Positions 3,920-39,517 of a stretch of 39,517 nucleotides of DNA are shown here, piece by piece. Source of the DNA: Deltaproteobacteria bacterium (GTDB taxonomy: Bacteria > JAEEML01); assembly GCA_016283195.1 (NCBI GenBank), contig JAEEML010000133.1, forward strand, positions 1 to 39,517, read 5' to 3'. The notes beneath the pieces were generated by a model, which saw only the letters and a list, made by a program, of their open reading frames with translations, was not told the DNA's origin and made no database searches. The translations under genes and the position numbers were made by a program. Numbering within the stretch: position 1 is the stretch's first letter; each line of letters begins with the position of its first letter.

Positions 3920-4669
3920 ATGCAAGTTGAGTATCATGCATGGCAAAGCGACCACCTTGGCCGCTGGATGGAATTAAAAACTTTTGGGAATCGCGGCGTG
4001 CCGTTTATTGTCTTTCCCTGTTCACGCGGGCGTTTCTACGATTACGAGAGCTTCCACATGGTGGATGCCATCAGCCAGTTTATTGAGCGCGGCTCTATTA
4101 TGCTGGTATGCGTTGACAGCTTGGACGAAGAGACATGGTACAATTTTGGCGTGGATCCCGGTGCCCGTAACTGGCGCTATGAACAATGGGATCAATATCT
4201 AACGGCCGAGGTGGTGCCTTTTATTCGCGATCACTTCCCCGAGGCTGCTTATAATCCCATGACCACCGGCAACAGCATGGGTGCTTATCACGCAGTGAAT
4301 ATCTTTTTAAAACACCCGGATATCTTTGCCGGCACCATTGCTCTTTCCGGCCTTTATACTTTGCAGCGTGATGAATTTGGTCTCGCTGGCCAGGATATTT
4401 CACCGGTTTATTTTAATTCGCCCATTAATTATCTTGAAAACCTCAGCGATAGTTTCTTTATCGACTTATACCGCCAGCGCGATATTATTGTCTGCACTGG
4501 CCAGGGCGCTTGGGAAGAAGCTTCGGTGGAAGATGCTCGGGCTCTCGATAATCATTTCCGTCGCCTTGGTGTTCCGGCCTGGGTTGATTACTGGGGCTAT
4601 GATGTCAATCACGACTGGCCCTGGTGGTTTAGACAGATGAATTACTTTTTGCACTGTCTGTTTGGCTAA
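3920..4669 (+). CDS. Esterase-D/PF00756-like alpha/beta hydrolase
   Basis: A 249-residue cytoplasmic alpha/beta hydrolase with no signal peptide. The nucleophile elbow is GNSMG (117-121, Ser119) followed by AYHA, as in the putative esterase family that includes S-formylglutathione hydrolases and siderophore esterases. The C-terminal VNHDW supplies a likely catalytic His231; the acidic residue is probably in the EASVEDARAL segment. GGAGAT sits 6-7 nt upstream of the ATG. It points the same way as the KS-NRPS genes and ends 145 nt before them. It could therefore be a trans-acting hydrolase for that pathway, since the NRPS has no terminal thioesterase, but the KS gene has its own promoter-like element and the link is only positional. 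Composition is close to the housekeeping genes rather than to the AT-rich KS. Confidence 0.8.
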   Translation: MQVEYHAWQSDHLGRWMELKTFGNRGVPFIVFPCSRGRFYDYESFHMVDAISQFIERGSIMLVCVDSLDEETWYNFGVDPGARNWRYEQWDQYLTAEVVPFIRDHFPEAAYNPMTTGNSMGAYHAVNIFLKHPDIFAGTIALSGLYTLQRDEFGLAGQDISPVYFNSPINYLENLSDSFFIDLYRQRDIIVCTGQGAWEEASVEDARALDNHFRRLGVPAWVDYWGYDVNHDWPWWFRQMNYFLHCLFG

Positions 4670-4814: not shown

Positions 4815-6740
4815 TTGGAAGCAAATAAGCAAATCGCGGTTATTGGTATGGGTCTGCGCTTTCCTGGAGCCAGCTCGCCGGGGGAGTTTTGGGATCTTCT
4901 GATAAGCGGGCGAGATGTGCAGCAAGATTTGCCAAAATCGCGCTGGGATAACAGTGAATTTTATAATAAAAAAAATCCTTCTTACGGTCTGATTTGCTGT
5001 GAACGTGGCTATTTTTTAACAGATTATTCTGGTTTTAACCCCACTTTATTTAATATTAAACCCAATGTGGCTAAAAAGATGGACCCCCACCAATGGCTGG
5101 TACTGGATACTGCGCGCGATGCCATACTTGATGCCGGAATATCAGCTGAATTATTACCAAAGCGCACGGCAGTTTTTGTTGGGGCCAGTAGTTCAGATAG
5201 TTATTCCCAAGTAGCGTTGGATGCTGTCGAAGACTATACTCCGCATACAAGTTTTGCTTGTGATCAAAGCCAATTGGCCGCTAATGTCGCTCGGTGTTTT
5301 GATTTGCGCGGACCAGTATTTACCATTAATTCAGCCTGCTCATCGGCATTGCATTCCATAATTTTGGCAAGTAACGCTCTTCTTGCCAGTGATTGTACTA
5401 TGGCTCTTGCCGGTGGAGTTCATCTCTACTTGAATCCCACGTCGGCTATTCTTCGCAGTAGAACAGGCATTTTATCGCCCGATGGATACTGCCGCACATT
5501 TGATGCCAAGGCTAATGGCTATGCTCTTGGTGAAGGAGCAGCTATGGTGCTTTTGGAATCTTTGGAAAATGCTCTTAAAAATAAACATAAAATATATGGC
5601 ATTATTTCCGGATATTATCAAAACCATAACGGTAGTTTGGCAACTATTGGCCAAAGCTCTTCCAAAGCTATTGAGGAGGTAATATTGGGGGCATTGCAGC
5701 ATGCCGGAATAACTGTTAGTGATTTGGCTTTTATGGAGTGTCATGGCACGGCAACAGCTAATGGTGACAGAGCCGAATTAACCGCTTTATCAGCTCTTAC
5801 CAAAGATAGCCACGATAAACAACTCTATCTTACAGCCAATAAAACTCATATTGGCCATTTGGAATCTGCCGCTGGTGTGGCCAGTTTTATCAGTGCTCTC
5901 CTAGCTCTAAATAAAGGAGATATTCCGCCTGTTTTGCACCTGCGACATCCGCATGAAATTTTGCAAAATTGTAAAAATATACAAGTAGTTGCAGAAAAAA
6001 TGCCTTTGCCTGCCGATAAAAAATATGCCGGAGTTAGTGCCTTTGCCATTAATGGTAGCAATGCCCACATTATTTTGGAAAAATATGTAGGTGAGCAAAA
6101 AGCTAATATTTCTTACAAATTATCGGCACCTGGTTATACTAAATACACAATTGGCTGCCCTAAAAAGGTTATTCACCGTATTGCTAATCAAAAAGAATCT
6201 TTGGATAATAACCTGGCAGATAAAATAGCTGATATCTGGGGCAAAAAATTAGGCTTTGCCGATGTTCCCCGCGATGTTACTTTTTTTGAACTTGGCGGCG
6301 ATTCTTTAGAAGTGCAAATGTTACTTTTGGAGTTGGAAGAGAATTATGATCTGCAACTTGATTGGGATACACTTAACAATTATCCCACAGTAAATAGTTT
6401 GGCAGAATATTTGCAAAGTGCTCTTCATACGAAACAAAAGGATTTGCTATTGCTACCGGAGACAGGTGAAAAGTTAACCAGAATACTCTTATTTGTCCTT
6501 GGTGAGATTATAGGCAAAAAAGTTACTCCAGATATGGCTTTTTCCACTTTTAATATGACCGAAAATGCGTATGCTGAATGTCAAAAAATTGTTGAACAAA
6601 TATTTCATATAAACATCGATATTGCTGAGTGGAAAAAGTTTTTAACTATTGATGATTTAAATTGTTTTTTGCTGAATAACATTGCTTCTGAGCAGCTTGA
6701 GCTATATATAAAAACATTTTCTGAGGTGTCTGGTTTATGA
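4815..6740 (+). CDS. AT-less polyketide synthase: ketosynthase, carrier protein and decayed second carrier domain
   Basis: A 641-residue protein that should catalyse a decarboxylative Claisen condensation on an assembly line. The ketosynthase covers about 5-425 with a full triad: Cys175 in SACSSALHS, His310 in ECHGTATANGD and His348 in KTHIGH (Lys343 also present). A carrier domain at about 465-540 has Ser497 in LGGDSL for phosphopantetheine. The last 100 residues (about 545-630) have the length and helix pattern of another carrier domain, but the serine motif is replaced (FNMTENAYA). There is no acyltransferase, ketoreductase or dehydratase, so the extender unit must come in trans. The start is TTG at 4815 with GGAGGG 8 nt upstream; the next ATG would cut into the KS fold. 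The stop overlaps the NRPS start. The gene is much AT-richer than its flanks, suggesting transfer. Confidence 0.9.
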   Translation: MEANKQIAVIGMGLRFPGASSPGEFWDLLISGRDVQQDLPKSRWDNSEFYNKKNPSYGLICCERGYFLTDYSGFNPTLFNIKPNVAKKMDPHQWLVLDTARDAILDAGISAELLPKRTAVFVGASSSDSYSQVALDAVEDYTPHTSFACDQSQLAANVARCFDLRGPVFTINSACSSALHSIILASNALLASDCTMALAGGVHLYLNPTSAILRSRTGILSPDGYCRTFDAKANGYALGEGAAMVLLESLENALKNKHKIYGIISGYYQNHNGSLATIGQSSSKAIEEVILGALQHAGITVSDLAFMECHGTATANGDRAELTALSALTKDSHDKQLYLTANKTHIGHLESAAGVASFISALLALNKGDIPPVLHLRHPHEILQNCKNIQVVAEKMPLPADKKYAGVSAFAINGSNAHIILEKYVGEQKANISYKLSAPGYTKYTIGCPKKVIHRIANQKESLDNNLADKIADIWGKKLGFADVPRDVTFFELGGDSLEVQMLLLELEENYDLQLDWDTLNNYPTVNSLAEYLQSALHTKQKDLLLLPETGEKLTRILLFVLGEIIGKKVTPDMAFSTFNMTENAYAECQKIVEQIFHINIDIAEWKKFLTIDDLNCFLLNNIASEQLELYIKTFSEVSGL

Positions 6741-9700
6741 GTCTCGAAAATCTTACAGAGTTACTCGATAAATACAAAACGTCCTTAGCTGAAAAAAATA
6801 CTATGTCGCCGCAGCTTTTTCCGGCAACTCCACAGCAAAAGGCCATTTGGGCCATAGAGCAATATCAAGATAAGCATTCACTTTATTTGGCACGGCGTTT
6901 TGTGGTTACCGGCCATTTTGCTGCAAATGAACTTGAAAAGCTATGTCTGACAATCATACATGAAGAACCGATTCTTCGCACTGTTTTTACTTATAAAAAC
7001 GGGGTATTATATCAATATGTGAGTTCCGATTTTAATTTTTCCGTTACGCATAAAGTTTTTGAAAATAATGCTGAAGTTACCAGCTATTGGAATTTTTTTC
7101 GAGAGCAAAAGGCCAATTTATTTCAGGGACCACTTTGGGAAATAGCACTTATAGATTGTGTCGGTGAACAGCAACTTTTTTTTAAATTACATCATATAAT
7201 TGGAGATGCCTATTCTGCACATTATTTTATTAAAAGATTGGCAGAAATAGCGGAAGGTGTACCGCCCAAAAAACATAAATCAACATATTTTGATTATGCC
7301 AAAGAGTTAAATAGTAAAAAGAGTCTTTTAGAAAAAAAAAGTTATGAAGTTTTAAATTCCGTAATTGCCAGAGAGCCATTGGTATTACCTTTTGCTCACG
7401 ATGCAGCAAATAATATATCCCTAAAGAGATATGCGTTTAAGTGGAATAATAATTTAATTCTATCTCTCAGGCGTTTGGCCAGAGAAAGTTCTGCTACGCT
7501 TAGTGCTCTTTATTTAGCTGCCTGGTCAATGCTGCTAGCCAGAATTTCTGGACAAAATAAGTTTGCGATATCAATGAATTATCATGGCAGATATGATAAA
7601 AGCTATGCTCAGACCTTGGGCGTTTTTACTACGCTTTTGCCACTTCTCATTGATTATGATGATATGCCAATAGCGGCTTTTTTTAAAAAAATATGCTCCT
7701 TGCAAAGTGAGGCAGAAAATAAAGCTATTTCTATTGATATGTTATTGGAATTGGCGGAAAAGCAGGAAGAATTAAATGTTTTACAACGTGTCTCAAGTAT
7801 AGATTTTAATATTATTTTAGGTAATACATCAAAATTTAAAATAGCATCTCACATGCTGACAGCTATTGCCGAAGAAGAATTAATAGATGCTATTTCATTG
7901 GGATTACAGCTTTTACCGCAGAGCGATGAATCTCTTGTGCTTTCACTCGTTTATGATGCCAATGCTTACTGCGAAAAACATATTACATACATTGCCGAGC
8001 TGTTGACTTCTATAGTCAAAGAGTTGCCTATAGCGCAATCAACAGGTGATATACTTACGCAAAATCTACCTGTTTTGCCATCTTATACTCCGCATCCTAC
8101 CATAGTGGAGCTTATTGCCAGGCAAGTGGAAAAATCACCGGATAGTGTGGCTCTTATCCATGGAAATTTTTGTGTAACTTACCGTGAACTTTGGGATAAG
8201 GCCACTATTTGGGCTGAGAGACTCTGGCAATTGGGAGCTCGTCCCCAAGGTCTTGTGGTAACATTCAGAGCGGTGGATATAGAGCAAGTGGCTATAATTT
8301 TGGCTATTTGGCGATTAGGAGCTTATTATTTACCGCTAGATTTTTATAACCAGCGGCCACTTCTTGCTGAGCTTGATTTTTTAGGTGAACCATTTGTGTT
8401 AATAAATAACGAAGATGTTTTACCGAATATAACTACATATACACATGAGGAAAATTGGCCAAAACCTAGTGATAAGGCATACTTAATTTATACTTCCGGC
8501 AGTACCGGAAAACCAAAAGCGGCTATTAATACCCACATGGGGCTTTCAGCTCAAATAATCGGCAAGTGCGAACGGCTTGGTTTAACTGGCCAAGATAATA
8601 TGGCATTTTCGTCTTCTTTGGCTTTTGATGTAACTTTTTTTCAATTATTTTCTGAGCTTACCATTGGCGGTCGAGTTACTATTCTGGAACATGCTACGCC
8701 AATTTTTGACCCCAATGCCTTATTATCGGAAATTATAACTTATGCAGTTACTGTTTTGCCTCTGGTTCCCAGCCAATTAGAAATACTTTGTATAAGAGGA
8801 AGCCATGAACTTTGGCAAAAAATAAAGCTAAAAATTCTAATACTTTCTGGTGAACGCTTTCCTACTTATTTGGCTAAAAAATGGCGTAATCTGTACCATC
8901 ACGGGGTTATATGGAATTTTTATGGTGTTACCGAGTGTAGTGATGATGTATCGGCGCAGCTAATAGATGAAAACATACTTACCAATTGGAGACATGATAC
9001 TTTACCGGCCGGTACGCCATTTAGAGATGCCTATGTTGATGTAGTTGATAATTGCCATCGACTTTTAAAACCGCTTTGTCCTGGAGAAATCTTGATTCGC
9101 GGTCCATTTGTCGGCCTTGGCTATCAAAATGATCCCCAACGTACGGCCTTATCTTTTAAGAAAGAAGGCTATTATACAGGCGATATTGGTTATAAAGATT
9201 TAGATGGTAATCTTGTTTATATGGGGCGGGGTGACAGTTTAGTAAAATTCCGTGGTTATCGCGTAGAACTTGCTGAAATAGAAAGAGCTTTGCAAAATCA
9301 GGAAGGGGTTTTTCTGGCGGCTGTTTCTCTTGTGAAATATGGTAATGAACAATTTATTCGGGCACATTTAGTGCCACAGAATGGGATAAAGCTTAACGCT
9401 ACTGTAATCATAAAAGGTCTTTTGACAGTTCTCCCCAATTATATGTTGCCCAAAGAGCTTATTTCTTGTCCAACTCTGCCTTACCTCCCCAGTGGCAAGC
9501 TTGATCGCCAAGCATTGGCTACTTGGCCCGGCGAAAAACTGGCCATTGCCAGTGGTAGGGCTCCGCAAGGGGAGGTTGAAAAAAAACTTGCTGATATTTT
9601 TAAAGAAATTCTGCACCTTGACAGCGAAATAGATGCCGAAGCCTCCTTTCTGGAGCTTGGGGGCTCATCGCTCTCGATGCTGGAGCTTAAAAACCGCTTG

Positions 9701-12700
9701 GCTGAAAGCTTTGGTTATGAAGTCCCAATTAATAGCCTTTTTAACGAAAATTCTATAGCTCTTCTTGGTAGTTTAATAACCAGCGGTTCTTTAAAAAAGC
9801 ATCTTACTATTAAACACGAAGAGCGGGAAAAAGCGCCTGCTCCAATGGGTGAGCTGCGCCTTTTTACCCTGGAACAAACTGGGAAACTAGCTGATCTTAT
9901 ATTGCGAGTAACCATAGAGTTGCCAAGGGGTCTTGGAGCTGATGAGTTGCAAAATATAATAAGCAAGTTACTGGAGCGCCACCCAATTTTGGATGCCCAC
10001 TTTGTTTTGGAGGGCGGAGAACTTTGGCTTAAAAAGGGCCATTTTACCTCGGCCGATATTTTGCGGCCACATAAGCTGGAACCGCTACAGGGGCCGTTAT
10101 GGCAGGTTGAGCAATTTAGCCAGGATGGCAAAGAGTTACTAACACTAGCCATTCATCACATAATTACCGATAATTACTCGCAAAATATTTTGGGAGAAGA
10201 GGTGTCGGTTCTTTTGAAAGGGGAGAAATTGCCACCTGTTTCTCCTACTGCGTTTGATTATTTTGATTTTGCTGCCTGGCAAAAGGAGTGGCTTGCCGGG
10301 CAGGATATAAAACTTTTGGCGCAAAAAACAGCTAATAAGGCTATTCAGGTTGCACCGCTGGTTTTGCCGGAGGAATATTGCGGCCAAGGAGAAAACGGTA
10401 ATTATTATTTTGTATTTCAACCGCAACTAGTGAGAATTTTAGAGATTTATGCGCAGAATAAGCAAATTACCATGGCGCAGTTGTTACTGGCTCTCTGGGG
10501 CCTCTTTTTACGCCTAATATGCGGCAGCGAAAATTTCGCCATAACCACATTATTAAGTGGTCGGGAGATATTGGGTGCTAATTCCCTGATGGGTTATTTT
10601 GTAAACAGTTTTCCACTCTTTTTTATAAATGTGCGCCCCATATTGAGCGAGATTTTACCTTCGGCCAAAGAGGAACTGGAAGGCGCTTTGGCTAATGAGC
10701 TGATCCCATTTGAATATTTGTCGGCCAATTTGCCGGAGCAGACAACGCCTCTGAGTTCCTTTACCAATGTTGGCTTTAATGTGCTTTCTTATGCAGAAAT
10801 ACCCTTGGAAATTACTTCCGGTGGCCATAATACCTATTTTGATCTTGGGCTTAATATTGTGATAAACGGCCATAAAATAGGGGCCAATTTGGAATATAGC
10901 CATAGATGTTATCGTGATACTACTGCAGCATATCTAGCGGAATTATTTATAAAAGTGGCTCAAAAAGCCCTGGAAGAGCCGGAAAATGTAATATCTTTGG
11001 CAGATTTTGCCCCAATAGATTTGCCTGCACTTATTTCACCAGCGCCGCCGCTTTTACCGCAAAAATTGGCAGAAAGCGGGAAAAATAACGCTGCTCAGAT
11101 TGCCATTACCGCCAGCGGCAAAGAACTTACATATCAAGGACTTGCCGCCGCCGCTCTCGCTCTTGCTGCGCAGTTATCTACTTATGGGGTCAAAGCCGGT
11201 GACATAGTATTTACTATGCTCCCGCGTTCGGCCTACTATCCGGCCGCCCTTATGGCCATTTGGCAAATAGGCGCTATTTACTGGCCGCTCGATATTAATA
11301 ATGATGAGCCGCGCTTAAAGACACTCTGGGAAGATGTCTCTGGCGCCTGGCTGTTAGCTGAAAATATTCAGCCATATATTGCTAAAGAGCGCGCTATTGT
11401 GCCTGATTACAGCTATAGCGGTGCGCTGCCGGAATATGTTACTTCACCTAAAGATATTGCTTATATTATAAGTACATCCGGCTCTACCGGCCGGCCCAAG
11501 GGGGCGATGAATTATCATGAAGGTCTCGCGCGCCATGTGTCCGCCAAGATAGCTTCGCTGGGGCTAGGCAGTGGCGATAGAGTGCTGGCTACAGCGGCTT
11601 TTAGTTTTGATGTTTCTTTGTGGCAAATGCTGGCTCCTCTGGCAGTGGGCGGTCAGCTCTATATATCGCAAAAAACTACTCCGGTTTTTGACCTGGCCGG
11701 ACTCATAGAAGAGCTTTTAAGCTATGAAATTGATTACTTAGAACTGGTGCCCAGCCAGCTGGAGATGCTGGTAAAGTATCTGAATACATTGGAGAAAAAG
11801 CCAGAATTAAAGCTTAAAAAGCTCCTTTTGGTGGGGCAAATTCTTTATAAAAACCTGGCTGAAAGCTGGCTTAATATTTATCCAAAAATTCCGCTTTTAA
11901 ATGTCTATGGCCCTTCGGAATGTGCCGATAATGTAGCCGAGTGCCTAATAGAACAAAAACTATTAACTTCTTGGAATAATAATATTTTACCCATAGGCAA
12001 GCCACTTCCAGGCTGCCATTTGGCGATAGTTGATGAAGAAATGCGGCCGCTGCCGCCGCTCTGTCCCGGCGAGCTTCTTATTTGCGGGCCATTTGTCGGC
12101 GCCGGCTATTATAATAATCCAAGTCTTACGGCAAACTCTTTTGGCACTTATAACAATTTGCCCTGTTACCACACCGGTGATCTCGCTGTTAAAACTTTGG
12201 CAGGAGATTTTGTTTGCCTGGGGCGTAAAGATAGCCAAATAAAGCTGCGCGGCTACCGCCTGGAACTGGGGGAAATCGAAAGCCATTTGCGTGAAATCAA
12301 AGGAATTTTAGCCGCTGCAGTAATAGCTTCCGAGACTGGAGCCGCAATGCAGCTTAAAGCCTATATTGTGGCCGAAGAGGGGAGTAAACCAAGTCGCCAG
12401 GTTATAGTGCGGGAACTTGGGCAAGTGGTGCCATATTATATGATTCCTCAGGAATTTTATTTGGTTAAATCATTGCCATATCTGCCTAGTGGCAAACTTA
12501 ATCGCCGAGCTTTAGCCACTTTAAGAGGGGAGCTTTTATCCGGTAGCGGCGGGCGAAAACCAAAAGGCGAGGTAGAAGAAAAAATAGCAACTGTTATTAA
12601 TGATATTCTTAAAACGGATGAAGAGATAGATGCTGAAGCACCTCTTTTTAGCCTGGGAGTGGATAGCTTTATTTTGCTGACGCTCTTTACGCGACTAGAA

Positions 12701-13618
12701 TCTGTTTTTGGCCATCATCTTCCAGCCCGCCTTTTTGCTCCCGATACTACTATTGTGGCTCTGGCTGATAATATTTCGGAATTAAGCAATGTAGGAGGTG
12801 AAATACTTCCTCTGGCATCTTATCGCCTTTTGGACGAGGCCGATTATCAGCTTATTCGGAATTTTTATCATACTCTGCCGCTTAAAGAAAAACTCCTTTT
12901 TCCCCAGCCCCTCCGCGAAAACGGCAAAAGCCTTATTAGTAAGGCACGTTACCTAGAACTTTTAAATAAAAACCAACTTCTCTTATTGGCTGTTTTGGAT
13001 CAAGCCGGCGAGCTTATCGGCTTTTCCTCTTATGCCGAAAATGCCCCGCAAATAGCCGTAAAAGAAGGAGTTTGGGCCACTCATCCGCCGACTTTGCAAG
13101 ATTTTCATTATCTTATTCCCAAGTGGCGCGGGCACATTCTTAAGCTTCCGGATTTTGTTGAATTTTTGCGCCAAAATGGCGTTGATAATGTTAAAGCGGC
13201 CGGGCGCCCGCATAGCACCGGCCTGATTGTAAAGCCGGAGATTCACCGCTACCAAGCGCGCCTTATTGCCGCCAGTATGACCAGCGACGGGCGGGCAGAA
13301 GAGGAGCTTTATAAGGCCCTCTTGCGCGAAGAGTCTTGGGCTCTTAAAGAAGCAGCTGGTTTCCCGGCAGAAATTTCCTGGCAAAAGCGCTATTTGCATC
13401 TCGTAAAGGGCAATAATTTTGCCGCCCGGCCCATAGAAGAATTTATTTCCGTACATGGTGACAGCGAGAGCCTTTTGGCGCTAAAGCCGCTGATAAATCC
13501 CCATTATCTTTTTACTTTTACTGCGGCCAGAGAGCGGGTTATGCGCGGTGAGCAGGAGTATGTGGGCCTCTCATTTTTCCACTTTGAGCCGCTCTTTTTG
13601 GGGGCGATTAATCTTTAA
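6737..13618 (+). CDS. Two-module nonribosomal peptide synthetase (C-A-PCP-C-A-PCP) with unassigned C-terminal domain
   Basis: A 2293-residue assembly-line enzyme. Condensation domain 1 is at about 25-440 (HHIIGD, His152-His153-Asp157). Adenylation 1 is at about 455-930 (YTSGSTGKPK at 585-594, LPSGK Lys921). Carrier 1 is at about 945-1015 (LGGSSL, Ser978). Condensation 2 is at about 1040-1430 (HHIITD, His1140-His1141-Asp1145), shortened at its first core motif. Adenylation 2 is at about 1455-1930 (TSGSTGRPK at 1580-1588, Lys1920), and carrier 2 at about 1945-2015 (LGVDSF, Ser1977). Residues 2025-2293 match no release domain I know. Their start (YRLLDEADYQLIRNFY, then LAVLDQAGELIGFSSYA) resembles a GNAT acetyltransferase, but the acetyl-CoA loop is not evident. 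There is no thioesterase, reductase or epimerase. Predicted role: add two amino acids to an acyl or ketoacyl chain handed on from the KS protein. The start ATG overlaps the KS stop, with GAGGTG 8 nt upstream. GC content rises markedly after adenylation 1. Confidence 0.93.
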   Translation: MSLENLTELLDKYKTSLAEKNTMSPQLFPATPQQKAIWAIEQYQDKHSLYLARRFVVTGHFAANELEKLCLTIIHEEPILRTVFTYKNGVLYQYVSSDFNFSVTHKVFENNAEVTSYWNFFREQKANLFQGPLWEIALIDCVGEQQLFFKLHHIIGDAYSAHYFIKRLAEIAEGVPPKKHKSTYFDYAKELNSKKSLLEKKSYEVLNSVIAREPLVLPFAHDAANNISLKRYAFKWNNNLILSLRRLARESSATLSALYLAAWSMLLARISGQNKFAISMNYHGRYDKSYAQTLGVFTTLLPLLIDYDDMPIAAFFKKICSLQSEAENKAISIDMLLELAEKQEELNVLQRVSSIDFNIILGNTSKFKIASHMLTAIAEEELIDAISLGLQLLPQSDESLVLSLVYDANAYCEKHITYIAELLTSIVKELPIAQSTGDILTQNLPVLPSYTPHPTIVELIARQVEKSPDSVALIHGNFCVTYRELWDKATIWAERLWQLGARPQGLVVTFRAVDIEQVAIILAIWRLGAYYLPLDFYNQRPLLAELDFLGEPFVLINNEDVLPNITTYTHEENWPKPSDKAYLIYTSGSTGKPKAAINTHMGLSAQIIGKCERLGLTGQDNMAFSSSLAFDVTFFQLFSELTIGGRVTILEHATPIFDPNALLSEIITYAVTVLPLVPSQLEILCIRGSHELWQKIKLKILILSGERFPTYLAKKWRNLYHHGVIWNFYGVTECSDDVSAQLIDENILTNWRHDTLPAGTPFRDAYVDVVDNCHRLLKPLCPGEILIRGPFVGLGYQNDPQRTALSFKKEGYYTGDIGYKDLDGNLVYMGRGDSLVKFRGYRVELAEIERALQNQEGVFLAAVSLVKYGNEQFIRAHLVPQNGIKLNATVIIKGLLTVLPNYMLPKELISCPTLPYLPSGKLDRQALATWPGEKLAIASGRAPQGEVEKKLADIFKEILHLDSEIDAEASFLELGGSSLSMLELKNRLAESFGYEVPINSLFNENSIALLGSLITSGSLKKHLTIKHEEREKAPAPMGELRLFTLEQTGKLADLILRVTIELPRGLGADELQNIISKLLERHPILDAHFVLEGGELWLKKGHFTSADILRPHKLEPLQGPLWQVEQFSQDGKELLTLAIHHIITDNYSQNILGEEVSVLLKGEKLPPVSPTAFDYFDFAAWQKEWLAGQDIKLLAQKTANKAIQVAPLVLPEEYCGQGENGNYYFVFQPQLVRILEIYAQNKQITMAQLLLALWGLFLRLICGSENFAITTLLSGREILGANSLMGYFVNSFPLFFINVRPILSEILPSAKEELEGALANELIPFEYLSANLPEQTTPLSSFTNVGFNVLSYAEIPLEITSGGHNTYFDLGLNIVINGHKIGANLEYSHRCYRDTTAAYLAELFIKVAQKALEEPENVISLADFAPIDLPALISPAPPLLPQKLAESGKNNAAQIAITASGKELTYQGLAAAALALAAQLSTYGVKAGDIVFTMLPRSAYYPAALMAIWQIGAIYWPLDINNDEPRLKTLWEDVSGAWLLAENIQPYIAKERAIVPDYSYSGALPEYVTSPKDIAYIISTSGSTGRPKGAMNYHEGLARHVSAKIASLGLGSGDRVLATAAFSFDVSLWQMLAPLAVGGQLYISQKTTPVFDLAGLIEELLSYEIDYLELVPSQLEMLVKYLNTLEKKPELKLKKLLLVGQILYKNLAESWLNIYPKIPLLNVYGPSECADNVAECLIEQKLLTSWNNNILPIGKPLPGCHLAIVDEEMRPLPPLCPGELLICGPFVGAGYYNNPSLTANSFGTYNNLPCYHTGDLAVKTLAGDFVCLGRKDSQIKLRGYRLELGEIESHLREIKGILAAAVIASETGAAMQLKAYIVAEEGSKPSRQVIVRELGQVVPYYMIPQEFYLVKSLPYLPSGKLNRRALATLRGELLSGSGGRKPKGEVEEKIATVINDILKTDEEIDAEAPLFSLGVDSFILLTLFTRLESVFGHHLPARLFAPDTTIVALADNISELSNVGGEILPLASYRLLDEADYQLIRNFYHTLPLKEKLLFPQPLRENGKSLISKARYLELLNKNQLLLLAVLDQAGELIGFSSYAENAPQIAVKEGVWATHPPTLQDFHYLIPKWRGHILKLPDFVEFLRQNGVDNVKAAGRPHSTGLIVKPEIHRYQARLIAASMTSDGRAEEELYKALLREESWALKEAAGFPAEISWQKRYLHLVKGNNFAARPIEEFISVHGDSESLLALKPLINPHYLFTFTAARERVMRGEQEYVGLSFFHFEPLFLGAINL

Positions 13619-33899: not shown

Positions 33900-36116
33900 A
33901 TGAGCGACCTCACAGGGCTTTTGGATGAGCTTGAAGGCGAACTGGATGATGTTCTTGCCCCGGAAAGCGCAGCCATAAACGACATTGCCAATAAAGAAGG
34001 CCACGCTAGTGAACACCGCTTTTTCGGCCCATATGAGCTGATCGAGCTGGTGGGGCAGGGCGGAGTGGCCGAGGTCTATCGCGCTACCCATGTCAATCCC
34101 GCTTATGCCGGCCAGGTTTTTGCTGTTAAACTTTTGCATGAGGATGTCTCCCGCAATGCGCAAATAGTGGAGTTTTTCCGCGCCGAGGCTTATTTGCTCT
34201 CCCTTTTGCGCCATCCCAATATCGTGCGCACTTTTGAAGCCAGCGCCATTGATTCCACTCTATATCTCGCCATGGAATATATTGAGGGGCGCAATTTGGA
34301 AGAGCTCAATGTGCAGCTCATCCGCGCCGGCCTCTCCATGCCGCGTTCCATCATTTTGTATATTGTTTCCGAAGTTTCCCGCGCTTTGCAATTTGCCCAT
34401 AATTTGACCGACAGCGAAGGTCATCGCCTGGGTGTGGTGCATCGCGATGTCAATCCGGCCAATATCTTTTTAGATTTTAACGGCCGGGTGCTTTTGGGCG
34501 ATTTCGGCGTGGCGGTTATTAATAACGCCAGTGTTTCAAGCGCCCAGAAGGAGCAAGTGGCCATGGCCGGTAAAGCCGGCTATTTTGCCCCTGAGCAATT
34601 TGAAGGCCAGAGCGATTATCGGGCCGATATTTACGCTCTCGGCATTGTTCTTTATGAGCGCCTGGCCGGCCATTTACTCTTTGAAGGTGAGAGCACAGAG
34701 CAAATTTTGAAGGCCAACAGGCGGGGTAAAATCCCACTTTTGCCGCCCGACAAAGCCTCGCCGGAAATAAACGCTATTTTGCAAAAGATCCTGGCGCGCT
34801 CCCCGAAAGATCGTTACCAAAGCGCCGGCAGAGTGCAAAAGGCACTGGAACCTCTTTTGCCACCGCCGCCGGTTATGCGCCTTGCTGTGGCCGTTTTGAT
34901 GCGTTCGCTTTTTGTAAGCGAATATAGCCATGAGCTTTTACTCAAAGAGCAGCATTACGGCAATGAGCTAAGTCCAAGTAAAAACCCGGTACTGGTTATT
35001 TCCCATGATGAAAGAACCCGTCTCGCTTTTCGTGATTTGCTCATCTCCAAGGGCTATCCCACCGCCACTATTGCCGGCATAGACAGCTTGCAAACAGTTT
35101 TAGAAGCCGCTACTGTGCCTGAAGTAATTTTGGTGGATATCCATAGTCCCACCTTTTCACCGCTTTTGTTTCGTTCCAAACTTTCCGCCTATAAACACAC
35201 GCCGGCTATTGTGGCTTTAAGTAATGATTTTTCTTTGACTTCTATTGAGGCTGCCCATGCTCTTGGGGCTATAGATTTGCTCTTTAAGCCCTATAGTATT
35301 GAGCGCGTTATTTGCTCTATTATCGAAGCGGCCATGAAGGCCCATCCTTTGCAAAATAATACTATTTCGGCCCCTATTAATAACGAAAACAGTTTTGCTA
35401 CCAGTGTGGCTATTATTTCCCAAAATGATGAGCTGGTGGAGCATTTTAAAAATAGCTTGAAACATGCCGGCTATAATCTGGAATATTTAAAAAATTCCGC
35501 TGCTTTGGTGGAAGCTATTCACCACAAGAGCTTTAAAGCGGTTATTTATGACGCTATGAGCCCGCTTTTGGCGCAAGAAGCGCCTACTTTGCCGGCTATG
35601 TTCCATGATTTACCCGGCTTTGAGTCTCTGCCGCTTATTTATTTGGCTGAAGGAAAAGAGGCTATAGATTTAGCCAATTTGAAGACGCTCAAAAGGACGG
35701 CCGTTACTTGCAGTGATGTGCGCCCGGTGCACCTGGCCAGAGTTATTGAGCGCCTGCTTTCCGGCGAAAAATATGGCCGCTGTTTTACCCGTTATGCCCA
35801 AAAATGTGCTGTTTCCTTGCGCCACGGCGGGCAGATTTTTGAAGGAGTTACCGAAAATATTAGTCGCGGCGGCCTTTTGGTGCGCTGCGGCGCTGTGCCG
35901 GCTCTTGAGGCCACCATCGGCATTACTCTAAAATTGCCTATTTTTTCCGAGCCTATTGAAGTGCGCGGCAAAGTAGTGCGCGTGACACCGGCCAGTGCCG
36001 CTTTTGACGGTAAACCTGGCACCGGTGTCTCTTTCCTCTCTTTTGCCGGCGACAGCGAAGAACTCCTCGTTTCATATATTATTTATATGGAAGAAAAGAA
36101 CGTGCCCAAGGTTTAG
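33900..36116 (+). CDS. Ser/Thr protein kinase with two receiver-like domains and a PilZ domain
   Basis: A 738-residue soluble signalling protein. The kinase spans about 45-320: glycine loop GQGGVAEVY (52-60), Lys77 in FAVKLL, Glu96, HRDVNPANIF with Asp183, DFG 201-203, and the APE-like PEQF. It should be an active Hanks-type kinase, although the glycine loop lacks the usual second Gly pattern. A receiver domain at about 362-478 has the phospho-acceptor Asp413 (ILVDIHSP) and Lys463. A second receiver-like domain at about 502-620 keeps Asp551 but lacks the Lys at the expected place. A PilZ domain at about 628-716 has RYAQK (631-635) and NISRGG (653-658). The second Arg of the canonical RxxxR c-di-GMP motif is Lys, so binding may be altered. 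The stop overlaps the convergent metallophosphoesterase by 4 bp. Such kinase-receiver fusions are common in myxobacteria. Confidence 0.92.
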   Translation: MSDLTGLLDELEGELDDVLAPESAAINDIANKEGHASEHRFFGPYELIELVGQGGVAEVYRATHVNPAYAGQVFAVKLLHEDVSRNAQIVEFFRAEAYLLSLLRHPNIVRTFEASAIDSTLYLAMEYIEGRNLEELNVQLIRAGLSMPRSIILYIVSEVSRALQFAHNLTDSEGHRLGVVHRDVNPANIFLDFNGRVLLGDFGVAVINNASVSSAQKEQVAMAGKAGYFAPEQFEGQSDYRADIYALGIVLYERLAGHLLFEGESTEQILKANRRGKIPLLPPDKASPEINAILQKILARSPKDRYQSAGRVQKALEPLLPPPPVMRLAVAVLMRSLFVSEYSHELLLKEQHYGNELSPSKNPVLVISHDERTRLAFRDLLISKGYPTATIAGIDSLQTVLEAATVPEVILVDIHSPTFSPLLFRSKLSAYKHTPAIVALSNDFSLTSIEAAHALGAIDLLFKPYSIERVICSIIEAAMKAHPLQNNTISAPINNENSFATSVAIISQNDELVEHFKNSLKHAGYNLEYLKNSAALVEAIHHKSFKAVIYDAMSPLLAQEAPTLPAMFHDLPGFESLPLIYLAEGKEAIDLANLKTLKRTAVTCSDVRPVHLARVIERLLSGEKYGRCFTRYAQKCAVSLRHGGQIFEGVTENISRGGLLVRCGAVPALEATIGITLKLPIFSEPIEVRGKVVRVTPASAAFDGKPGTGVSFLSFAGDSEELLVSYIIYMEEKNVPKV

Positions 36117-37511: not shown

Positions 37512-38246
37512 TTAGCCGGTAATGCGGGCTAAAAGTGCCGTTTGACCGTCTTCTTTAAAAAGCGCCGCCTCATGGCCGTTATCTATTTTACGAACCATGA
37601 TTTTTAGTCTTTCGCCTTCAAAGCACTGAGCTCTATAAGCCACTTCAATATCTTTTATGGCCAGTTCCTTTTGCTCTTTTACGGAAAAAGCATCCATAAG
37701 TACGCGGATATAGGCAGTGTTATTCATGTGTTTGCTGCCATCGATATCGGTGGCGCGCACAATATATTCGCCGCGCTCTTCTTCGGGGGCAAAATCGGGC
37801 TCTATGTGTGAAAAGTCGCCGGGGCATGACGTGCGTTCAATTGCTTTAAAATCCGGTGGATAGGCTAGGCTGATGGGCGGCGGGCGGCCACTGGTTATGC
37901 TAAGCGCTGCCCACTCATTTTTAGCTTCTATGATGAGGCTGCCGCTTTGGTCTTTCATTTCATAGTAGCGCATACAGCGATAGGCTCTTTCTTCCGGTGC
38001 CGCCGGCCAGGTGGAGAGAGTAACTCTTTCCAAAAGGCGCGGGCGCAAATGAAAGTGGACTTTGGTGCGCACAGCTACCCAAAAAAGCCCCTTTTGTGCC
38101 ATTTCGGTGAGGCCAAAAGATGATTCTTCGCTCTGTACGGTGGCTATATCCATTAAAAGATTAAAGGTGTGATAAATACCCAGGCGGAAATCGTAATCGC
38201 AAAAGCTGGTAGTTATTTGCAAATCTTTGGTGAGAATGTTGCTCAT
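37512..38246 (-). CDS. Acyl-ACP thioesterase
   Basis: A 244-residue double hotdog enzyme that should hydrolyse acyl-ACP to release fatty acids. The N-terminal hotdog has FCDYDFRLGIYHTFNLLMDIA and FWVAVRTKVHFHLRPRLLERVTLSTWP, typical of the FatA-like family. The C-terminal hotdog holds the catalytic region RATDIDGSKHMNNTAYIRVLMDAF with the expected Asp/Asn and His. AAGG is 9 nt upstream of the ATG. It precedes the metallophosphoesterase gene by 16 bp. A role in releasing acyl chains for the KS-NRPS locus is conceivable but that locus is 24 kb away; general lipid metabolism is more likely. Confidence 0.88.
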   Translation of the reverse strand: MSNILTKDLQITTSFCDYDFRLGIYHTFNLLMDIATVQSEESSFGLTEMAQKGLFWVAVRTKVHFHLRPRLLERVTLSTWPAAPEERAYRCMRYYEMKDQSGSLIIEAKNEWAALSITSGRPPPISLAYPPDFKAIERTSCPGDFSHIEPDFAPEEERGEYIVRATDIDGSKHMNNTAYIRVLMDAFSVKEQKELAIKDIEVAYRAQCFEGERLKIMVRKIDNGHEAALFKEDGQTALLARITG

Positions 38247-38329: not shown

Positions 38330-39517
38330 TTAGTTAGCCGGGTTCAAAACGCGGCCGACAAAGAGGGGAGTTTTGCTTTCTTTTTCATAGATAGCAAAGA
38401 AGAAGGGCCGATCGATGATTATAGAGATAATTTCCGGCTCGTCTGTTTCACCATCTATGGCGCCCTCGTTCGAAACAACTGCCGTAGCTGCCGCGGCTTC
38501 TACCCCTTTTTCGTCCAGGCCAACAAAGGTTTTATGATATATTTCGTCAATATAAAGCAGATTCTTTTCTTTGGTCATTAGGGAGAAATTGGCCTTCCCT
38601 GTCATATCAAAGGCCTCAACCATGCCTAGAGATTTTAGAGGTGCGCTAAGAGAGAGCGAAGTATCAAAAGTGAAGGGGGGAAGCTCAACGTATACCTCTT
38701 TTTTGTTACTTAATGAGCTAAAAATATTGCTAACGAGGCTGCCATTTAGTTTGTTGGCGATAGTGCTGAATGAACCGGCATCAGGCACCACAAATAGCAC
38801 CTCAAAACTCTTATTATACAAAGGCAGAGAAACAGCGGCAAAACTATCTCCCTTCATATATTTGAAATTATTAGAGGCATATAGCTTGTCAAGTTCTTTT
38901 TTGTTCCCATCAAGATTGTTAAAGGAAATGTGACCGTCTTTTTTTATTTCGTCGTCCCAAGGTGCTTTAAAAAAGAGAGCATTGGTGATTACCGACATGG
39001 TGGCCGCTGTAATGCCCTTTTCAGGAATCAGGTTTTTGATGCGGCTATTGGTATCTTTTTCAACAACACTATTGATGTACTTGCGGGCTTTTTCCGGGTC
39101 GGCGGCAAAATCAATTTCCTCGAGACCGGCGCCGTAATTTTCCGCCAAAAGGTCGAGCCAAGCTGTAGCCCAGGTATATTTTTTGGTGGAGAAGTACAAA
39201 TTATTAGAGCTCTTTATCTCCACGGCGTCGTGTTTATTATATTCGCTATTATCGGCCGGTTCGTTTTTAGACATAACGAGGGCTTCCAGCTTGTTTAGGG
39301 CATCGTGGGTATTGCTACCAAAATGGAGCACATTTTTCATCTCATCGGCAGTGTTACCGGCCGCGCCACCCCAGGTCATGCCAAGAGCCATCTGAATACT
39401 AAAGGTGGAAATCATGGCATTTTGACCTTCTATTTGCTCTTCCGCAGCTTTTAATAGCTCAAAATTAAGGTCGTATTGACCTTCTACAAATGAGGCCAGG
39501 GCACTTTCGCTAATTGC
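38330..39517 (-). CDS. Serpin (N-terminus cut by window edge)
   Basis: The open frame enters from the right edge and ends at 38330, giving at least 396 residues. Its beginning lies outside, so an ATG at 39415 is internal. The serpin landmarks are clear: NAMISTFSIQMALGMTWGGAAGNTADEMK, NALFFKAPWDDEI, VLFVVPD, VELPPFTFDTSLSL and the C-terminal DRPFFFAIYEKESKTPLFVGRVLNP. The reactive-loop hinge reads EKGVEAAAATAV, which is the small-residue pattern of inhibitory serpins, so it should trap serine (or cysteine) proteases. The scissile P1-P1' pair cannot be set by eye. Whether it is secreted cannot be told without the N-terminus. Bacterial serpins occur in few lineages, often host-associated or with secreted proteases. 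Confidence 0.93.
   Translation of the reverse strand, partial: AISESALASFVEGQYDLNFELLKAAEEQIEGQNAMISTFSIQMALGMTWGGAAGNTADEMKNVLHFGSNTHDALNKLEALVMSKNEPADNSEYNKHDAVEIKSSNNLYFSTKKYTWATAWLDLLAENYGAGLEEIDFAADPEKARKYINSVVEKDTNSRIKNLIPEKGITAATMSVITNALFFKAPWDDEIKKDGHISFNNLDGNKKELDKLYASNNFKYMKGDSFAAVSLPLYNKSFEVLFVVPDAGSFSTIANKLNGSLVSNIFSSLSNKKEVYVELPPFTFDTSLSLSAPLKSLGMVEAFDMTGKANFSLMTKEKNLLYIDEIYHKTFVGLDEKGVEAAAATAVVSNEGAIDGETDEPEIISIIIDRPFFFAIYEKESKTPLFVGRVLNPAN

What the first reader, a model, noticed from the sequence alone, without database searches (positions are those of the whole stretch)
4815..13618. Compact KS-ACP plus two-module NRPS locus without acyltransferase or any known release domain
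The two genes form a whole, ATGA-coupled assembly line with intact KS triad (Cys175, His310, His348), two C domains, two A domains and three carrier serines (497 of the KS protein, 978 and 1977 of the NRPS). There is no AT, KR, DH, thioesterase, reductase or epimerase domain and no phosphopantetheinyl transferase nearby. By ordinary logic the product is an acyl or ketoacyl dipeptide, but the origin of the extender and the way the chain leaves are not explained. This combination is not one I can name.
Basis: partly seen in the sequence, partly recalled or inferred. Interest (0 to 1): 0.8.

Follow-up and report, generated by a model that had tools for sequence, protein, structure and literature searches.

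The report
Minimal AT-less polyketide–dipeptide assembly line
Two overlapping genes from a bacterium of a barely sampled phylum encode a very small hybrid enzyme line, predicted to join one fatty-acid-like unit to two amino acids; it borrows its missing loading steps from elsewhere in the genome, and the place where the finished chain should be cut off is taken by an unrecognised protein region.

Summary
In detail: a TTG-start KS–ACP gene (4815-6740) overlaps by ATGA a C-A-T-C-A-T NRPS gene (6737-13618). KS Cys175/His310/His348 and carrier Ser497/978/1977 are present; AT, TE, R and E domains are absent. Four corrections. (1) The KS protein ends in a second carrier fold without the serine (pseudo-ACP). 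(2) The NRPS does not end at its last carrier: about 260 further residues match nothing in Pfam, NCBIfam, PHROGs, solved structures, plasmids or 385 other genomes. (3) The parts missing locally exist elsewhere in the genome: a 270-aa phosphopantetheinyl transferase, malonyltransferase domains in a PUFA synthase and another PKS, and a free thioesterase. No discrete FabD was found. (4) The KS groups with cis-AT/hybrid KSs, not classical trans-AT KSs, and has lost the KS-AT linker. AT-less PKS–NRPS hybrids are a known kind, and loading by primary-metabolism FabD has been demonstrated. The pair looks horizontally acquired (GC3 0.32-0.37 against about 0.5-0.6 for most neighbours) and no close relative was found. 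Verdict: a new, reduced variant of a known kind. Chain release and the function of the C-terminal region are the open points.

The parts
4815..6101 (+). Ketosynthase domain (aa ~5-429), divergent, of cis-AT/hybrid ancestry; triad C175/H310/H348, K343 kept
6102..6218 (+). Short linker of ~40 aa between KS and ACP; no AT, KS-AT linker domain or AT-docking domain
6219..6413 (+). Active carrier domain (aa 469-533), LGGDSL, S497
6453..6737 (+). Second carrier-fold domain lacking the phosphopantetheine serine (pseudo-ACP, aa ~547-641; helix II starts FNMT-ENAYAEC); possibly a docking element
   Evidence: AlphaFold2 mean pLDDT 72, best of five models; all 50 listed PDB fold hits contain ACP/PCP folds, best E 0.02, probability 1.00
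6779..8056 (+). Condensation domain 1 (aa ~15-440), HHIIGDA
8057..9556 (+). Adenylation domain 1 (aa ~441-940); pocket code by motif anchoring D-V-F-P-I-S-F-D-D-K
9557..9826 (+). Carrier domain T1 (aa ~941-1030), S978
9827..11008 (+). Condensation domain 2 (aa ~1031-1424), HHIITDN
11009..12541 (+). Adenylation domain 2 (aa ~1425-1935); pocket code by motif anchoring D-V-W-E-L-V-V-D-N-K; 39% identical to A1
12542..12823 (+). Carrier domain T2 (aa ~1936-2029), LGVDSF, S1977
12824..13615 (+). Unassigned C-terminal region (aa ~2030-2293) in the position of a release domain; no Cys, no GxSxG, no GxxGxxG, no HHxxxD
3920..4669 (+). PF00756-type esterase upstream on the same strand (145-base gap); possible but unlikely trans hydrolase: GC like the host, 50% identical to an esterase of Peptoclostridium acidaminophilum

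Best explanation
A horizontally acquired, reduced PKS-NRPS hybrid assembly line of one KS-ACP module followed by two NRPS modules. Proposed working: (i) a genome-encoded Sfp-like PPTase arms the three carriers; (ii) the ACP is malonylated in trans, most likely by the malonyltransferase domain of the host's PUFA synthase or of the second iterative PKS, since no discrete FabD was found; (iii) the KS takes an acyl group from host acyl-ACP or acyl-CoA and condenses it to a beta-ketoacyl-ACP, which stays unreduced; (iv) C1 and C2 add two amino acids chosen by A1 and A2; (v) the beta-ketoacyl-dipeptide leaves T2 through the unassigned C-terminal region, a trans thioesterase or self-cyclisation. Shown: domains, intact catalytic residues, absence of AT and of known release domains, presence of the trans parts in the genome, foreign composition; the pseudo-ACP is a fold prediction. 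Inferred: activity, trans malonylation, acyl starter, product and release route.
For: Intact 8.8-kb translationally coupled pair with the catalytic residues of KS, C and carrier domains present. Low GC3 (KS 0.32, NRPS 0.37) against mostly 0.46-0.64 for neighbours and other host genes. The KS lies in the cis-AT/hybrid clade (27 rows, 100/100), outside the clade of Bacillus velezensis and Methylosinus trichosporium AT-less KSs (11 rows, 98/89); it lacks the KS-AT linker seen after most other type I KSs. A PF01648 PPTase is encoded at contig C37. The only PF00698 acyltransferases are in a PUFA-type synthase (GHSYG) and an iterative PKS (GQSFG), while FabH and an AcpP are present, so malonylation of carriers by a domain of another enzyme is probably already needed in this cell. 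PfaA's MAT replaces FabD in vivo (PMC8174602), and FabD serves AT-less hybrid PKSs (PMC13096860, PMC12828459).
Against: No expression or product evidence. The KS is highly diverged (end branch 1.79; 10 of 53 highly conserved columns changed, median 1) and may not elongate. The first carrier has a PCP-like GGDS motif and has not been shown to accept malonyl. The genome is a 190-contig assembly, so a discrete FabD could be missing from it. No homologous locus tests conservation.
Confidence: 0.5

Rival explanations
1. The KS does not elongate: it acts as a transacylase that moves an acyl group onto its carrier, and the line makes a plain N-acyl-dipeptide, so no extender unit and no AT are needed.
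For: No AT, KR or DH; several highly conserved KS positions are changed (DPQQR to DPHQW, DTACSSS to NSACSSA, HGTGT to HGTAT, KTNIGH to KTHIGH); PCP-like GGDS carrier motif; long branch.
Against: C175, H310, K343 and H348 are all retained; non-elongating KSs usually lack the HGTGT histidine (general knowledge).
Confidence: 0.25
2. A decaying remnant of a larger hybrid cluster that has lost its AT, linker and thioesterase and no longer makes a product.
For: Missing AT, linker and TE; serine-less second ACP; divergent KS; C-domain motif changes (DG to DA and DN); no transporter, regulator or MbtH gene recognised directly next to the pair.
Against: Both frames are open over 8.8 kb with the catalytic residues intact, ATGA coupling and a plausible ribosome-binding site.
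Confidence: 0.17
3. A classical trans-AT PKS-NRPS system whose discrete AT and TE lie elsewhere in the genome as dedicated proteins.
For: AT-less module; free-standing PF00975 thioesterase at contig C115.
Against: KS not in the trans-AT clade; no AT-docking or linker domain; no discrete AT in the genome; the C115 thioesterase follows a gene of unknown family.
Confidence: 0.08

Closest known systems
Barnesin A assembly line BrnE/BrnF (Sulfurospirillum barnesii; PMC13096860)
   Same: Compact hybrid with two NRPS modules and a single AT-less KS module; no AT in the cluster, loading attributed to FabD
   Different: Order is reversed (NRPS then PKS); the PKS has KR, DH and a TE; the cluster has its own PPTase and transporter
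Detoxin/rimosamide-type PipC (pseudotetraivprolide, Pseudomonas entomophila; PMC12828459)
   Same: AT-less KS module in an NRPS hybrid, loaded in trans by primary-metabolism FabD in vitro
   Different: PipC keeps an AT-docking domain, a KR and a TE; here all three are absent
Algal PKSs whose integrated AT domains were displaced in trans (PMC4661987)
   Same: Proposed route from a cis-AT ancestor to an AT-less module
   Different: Eukaryotic giant PKSs; no NRPS pair of this form
PfaA malonyltransferase replacing FabD (PMC8174602)
   Same: Precedent for a PUFA-synthase MAT acting on other carriers; the host here has such a synthase and no discrete FabD detected
   Different: Shown for the fatty acid synthase ACP, not for a hybrid PKS-NRPS carrier

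Membership tests
PKS-NRPS hybrid assembly line | KS and carrier domain together with C-A-T modules in coupled genes | tested here: met
PKS-NRPS hybrid assembly line | Intact catalytic residues in KS, C and carrier domains | tested here: met
Trans-AT PKS (classical clade) | No integrated AT | tested here: met
Trans-AT PKS (classical clade) | KS phylogenetically within the trans-AT KS clade | tested here: not met
   Window KS in the cis-AT/hybrid group (100/100); small reference set and long branch
Trans-AT PKS (classical clade) | AT-docking/linker domain after the KS | tested here: not met
   40-aa linker only
Trans-AT PKS (classical clade) | Discrete AT encoded in or near the cluster | tested here: not met
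   No PF00698 or TIGR00128 match in the window contig; only multidomain ATs in the genome
NRPS with known release domain (TE, R, terminal C) | Recognised C-terminal TE, reductase or condensation domain | tested here: not met
FabD-dependent AT-less hybrid (barnesin/PipC kind) | ACP malonylated by a primary-metabolism transacylase | not testable with these tools
   Needs a transacylation assay; no discrete FabD over cut-off found

The most novel reading that the evidence does not exclude
The ~260-residue C-terminal region is a new type of chain-release or transfer domain of an NRPS, paired with a pseudo-ACP docking module, in a line that draws its extender unit from a PUFA synthase.
Probability: 0.15. 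Interest if true: 0.72.

Novelty: new variant of a known kind. Interest (0 to 1): 0.38.

Why it matters
It shows how little an assembly line may need to carry if loading enzymes are shared with lipid synthesis, and it offers a small expressible system (two genes, 8.8 kb) to test two open points: whether a PUFA-synthase malonyltransferase can feed a hybrid PKS–NRPS, and whether the orphan C-terminal region releases the product. It comes from a lineage that is the only genome of its phylum in the set searched.

Tried and rejected
A hidden AT or TE: no family match and no motif. Identification of the C-terminal region by fold: the single-sequence AlphaFold2 model had mean pLDDT 34 and was not searched; PDB sequence hits were low-complexity matches to designed alpha-repeat proteins; by eye a GNAT-like start was suspected but no GNAT family matched, so it is not claimed. 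Homologues of that region in 385 other genomes: only chance-level scores, best E 0.004 over 102 residues. Homologous pair in 84,980 species by peptide patterns: none for the KS; the A-domain query gave 20 loci at 23-37% identity from unrelated bacteria. L008 (a 600-aa KS ORF without AT) was examined as a possible parallel, but it keeps the KS-AT and post-AT linkers and shows no carrier. Upstream esterase as dedicated thioesterase: judged unlikely, host-like GC and an ordinary relative. C118 A-ACP protein as starter loader: it carries a glycerolipid-type acyltransferase domain, so probably lipid metabolism. In one search I fetched 50 kb of Mycobacterium ulcerans plasmid pMUM001 as a cis-AT yardstick; as it is a pathogen's virulence plasmid it should not have been fetched, and it was excluded from all analyses. 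AT presence in the tree labels was judged by a GHSxG-type pattern within 480 aa of the KS end, so some 'noAT' labels may be wrong. Substrates of A1 and A2 are not predicted: the codes match nothing I can assign.

Full report
What is there. Two + strand genes form the finding. The first (4815-6740, TTG start preceded by GGGGGAGGG) encodes 641 residues; the second (6737-13618) encodes 2293 and overlaps the first by ATGA. Pfam finds KS N and C parts and one carrier in the first, and two condensation, two adenylation and two carrier domains in the second. The stated residues are right: C175, H310, H348 and S497, S978 and S1977, with HHxxxD in both condensation domains. No AT, KR, DH, TE, reductase or epimerase is recognised by Pfam or NCBIfam, and neither protein contains a GxSxG or GHSxG motif.

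First, KS-protein residues about 547-641 are predicted as a helical bundle (mean pLDDT 72 in the best of five models; the other four 45-49), and all 50 listed PDB matches contain acyl or peptidyl carrier folds (probability 1.00, best E 0.02). The start of helix II reads FNMT-ENAYAEC, with no serine at the attachment site, so this is most likely an inactive second carrier. Sequence comparison alone does not show it. Second, the NRPS continues for about 260 residues after its last carrier. That region matches nothing in Pfam, NCBIfam or PHROGs even at E 5, no meaningful PDB chain, no plasmid record and nothing above chance in 385 other genomes. It has no cysteine and no release-domain motif. Its fold could not be predicted (pLDDT 34).

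Origin. GC3 is 0.32 for the KS gene and 0.37 for the NRPS gene, while most neighbours and other host genes lie at 0.46-0.64. Within the NRPS it rises from about 0.28 (C1-A1) to about 0.42 (T1-C2-A2) and 0.5 in the C-terminal region. The flanks are genome-backbone genes: trmD, maf and a phosphosugar mutase on one side, a glycosyltransferase and a radical SAM protein on the other. The pair therefore looks acquired. A1 and A2 are 39% identical to each other, more than either is to its best-ranked plasmid match (32% and 35%), which suggests module duplication.

KS ancestry. In a 58-row tree the window KS falls in a group of cis-AT and hybrid KSs (27 rows, support 100/100), while AT-less KSs of Bacillus velezensis and Methylosinus trichosporium form another group (11 rows, 98/89). 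Its end branch is the longest (1.79), so its exact place is unsure. It departs from 10 of 53 columns that are at least 90% conserved in type I KSs, against a median of 1. Most other type I KSs are followed by a recognisable linker ('LSAK...'); the window KS has only about 40 residues before its carrier. The simplest reading is loss of AT and linker from a cis-AT ancestor, as proposed for algal PKSs (PMC4661987).

What the genome supplies. The window lies in a 3.2-Mb, 190-contig assembly, the only genome of its phylum in the set; the lineage was not named. It encodes a 270-aa PPTase. PF00698 acyltransferases occur only in a PUFA-type synthase locus (KS-AT-ACP-ACP; KR-DH; KS-AT-FabA; ER-like) and in an iterative KS-KS-AT-ACP-KR-DH protein. 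No protein reaches the FabD cut-off, although FabH and a free ACP are present. If the assembly is complete in this respect, the cell's fatty acid synthase already depends on a malonyltransferase domain of another enzyme. This has precedent: PfaA's MAT compensates for FabD loss in Photobacterium profundum, and pfa genes complement an E. coli fabD mutant (PMC8174602). A free PF00975 thioesterase lies at contig C115 and acyl-ACP or 4HBT-type thioesterases at window 37512-38246 and contig C189; none is tied to the pair.

Comparison with the known. Barnesin's AT-less PKS is served by FabD, and FabD malonylates the ACP of PipC in vitro. A survey lists 860 trans-AT PKS–NRPS hybrids among 8799 assembly lines, 95% of which are orphans. 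So the AT-less hybrid as such is known. What differs here is the ancestry of the KS, the lack of a linker or docking domain, the pseudo-ACP, the unreduced single extension, and the unassigned C-terminal region instead of a TE. No close relative was found in 84,980 species by peptide patterns (these reach only fairly close relatives), nor in whole-genome searches (best KS matches 36-40% identity, best NRPS matches about 30%).

Mechanism and confidence. The best-supported account is trans-phosphopantetheinylation, trans-malonylation, one KS extension of a host acyl group, two amino acid additions and release by the C-terminal region, a trans enzyme or cyclisation. The domain anatomy and the presence of the trans parts are shown; activity, substrates and release are inferred. 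The chief rivals are a non-elongating KS and a decaying locus. All need biochemistry or orthologues to decide.

Noticed in passing
genome G000 (contigs C57, C189, C31, C22): No discrete FabD reaches the family cut-off although FabH and AcpP exist; the only malonyltransferases are domains of a PUFA synthase and an iterative PKS. Possible natural case of a PUFA-synthase MAT feeding fatty acid synthesis.
   Followed up: partly
L031:3253-10956: Iterative KS-KS-AT-ACP-KR-DH protein with a neighbouring 4HBT-type thioesterase gene, unlike the PUFA locus.
   Followed up: partly
L118:4882-7392: Fusion of an AMP-binding ligase, a carrier and a glycerolipid-type acyltransferase, next to a CDP-alcohol phosphatidyltransferase gene.
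   Followed up: partly
L105:4580-8971: 1463-aa ORF without any Pfam match directly upstream of a free PF00975 thioesterase.
   Followed up: no
window 33900-36116: Protein kinase, response-regulator receiver and PilZ domains in one 738-aa protein.
   Followed up: no
window 38330-39415: Bacterial serpin (serine protease inhibitor), next to an acyl-ACP thioesterase gene at 37512-38246.
   Followed up: no
window 9400-9700: GC3 steps from about 0.28 to about 0.42 near the A1/T1 boundary of the NRPS gene, suggesting a mosaic origin of the two modules.
   Followed up: partly
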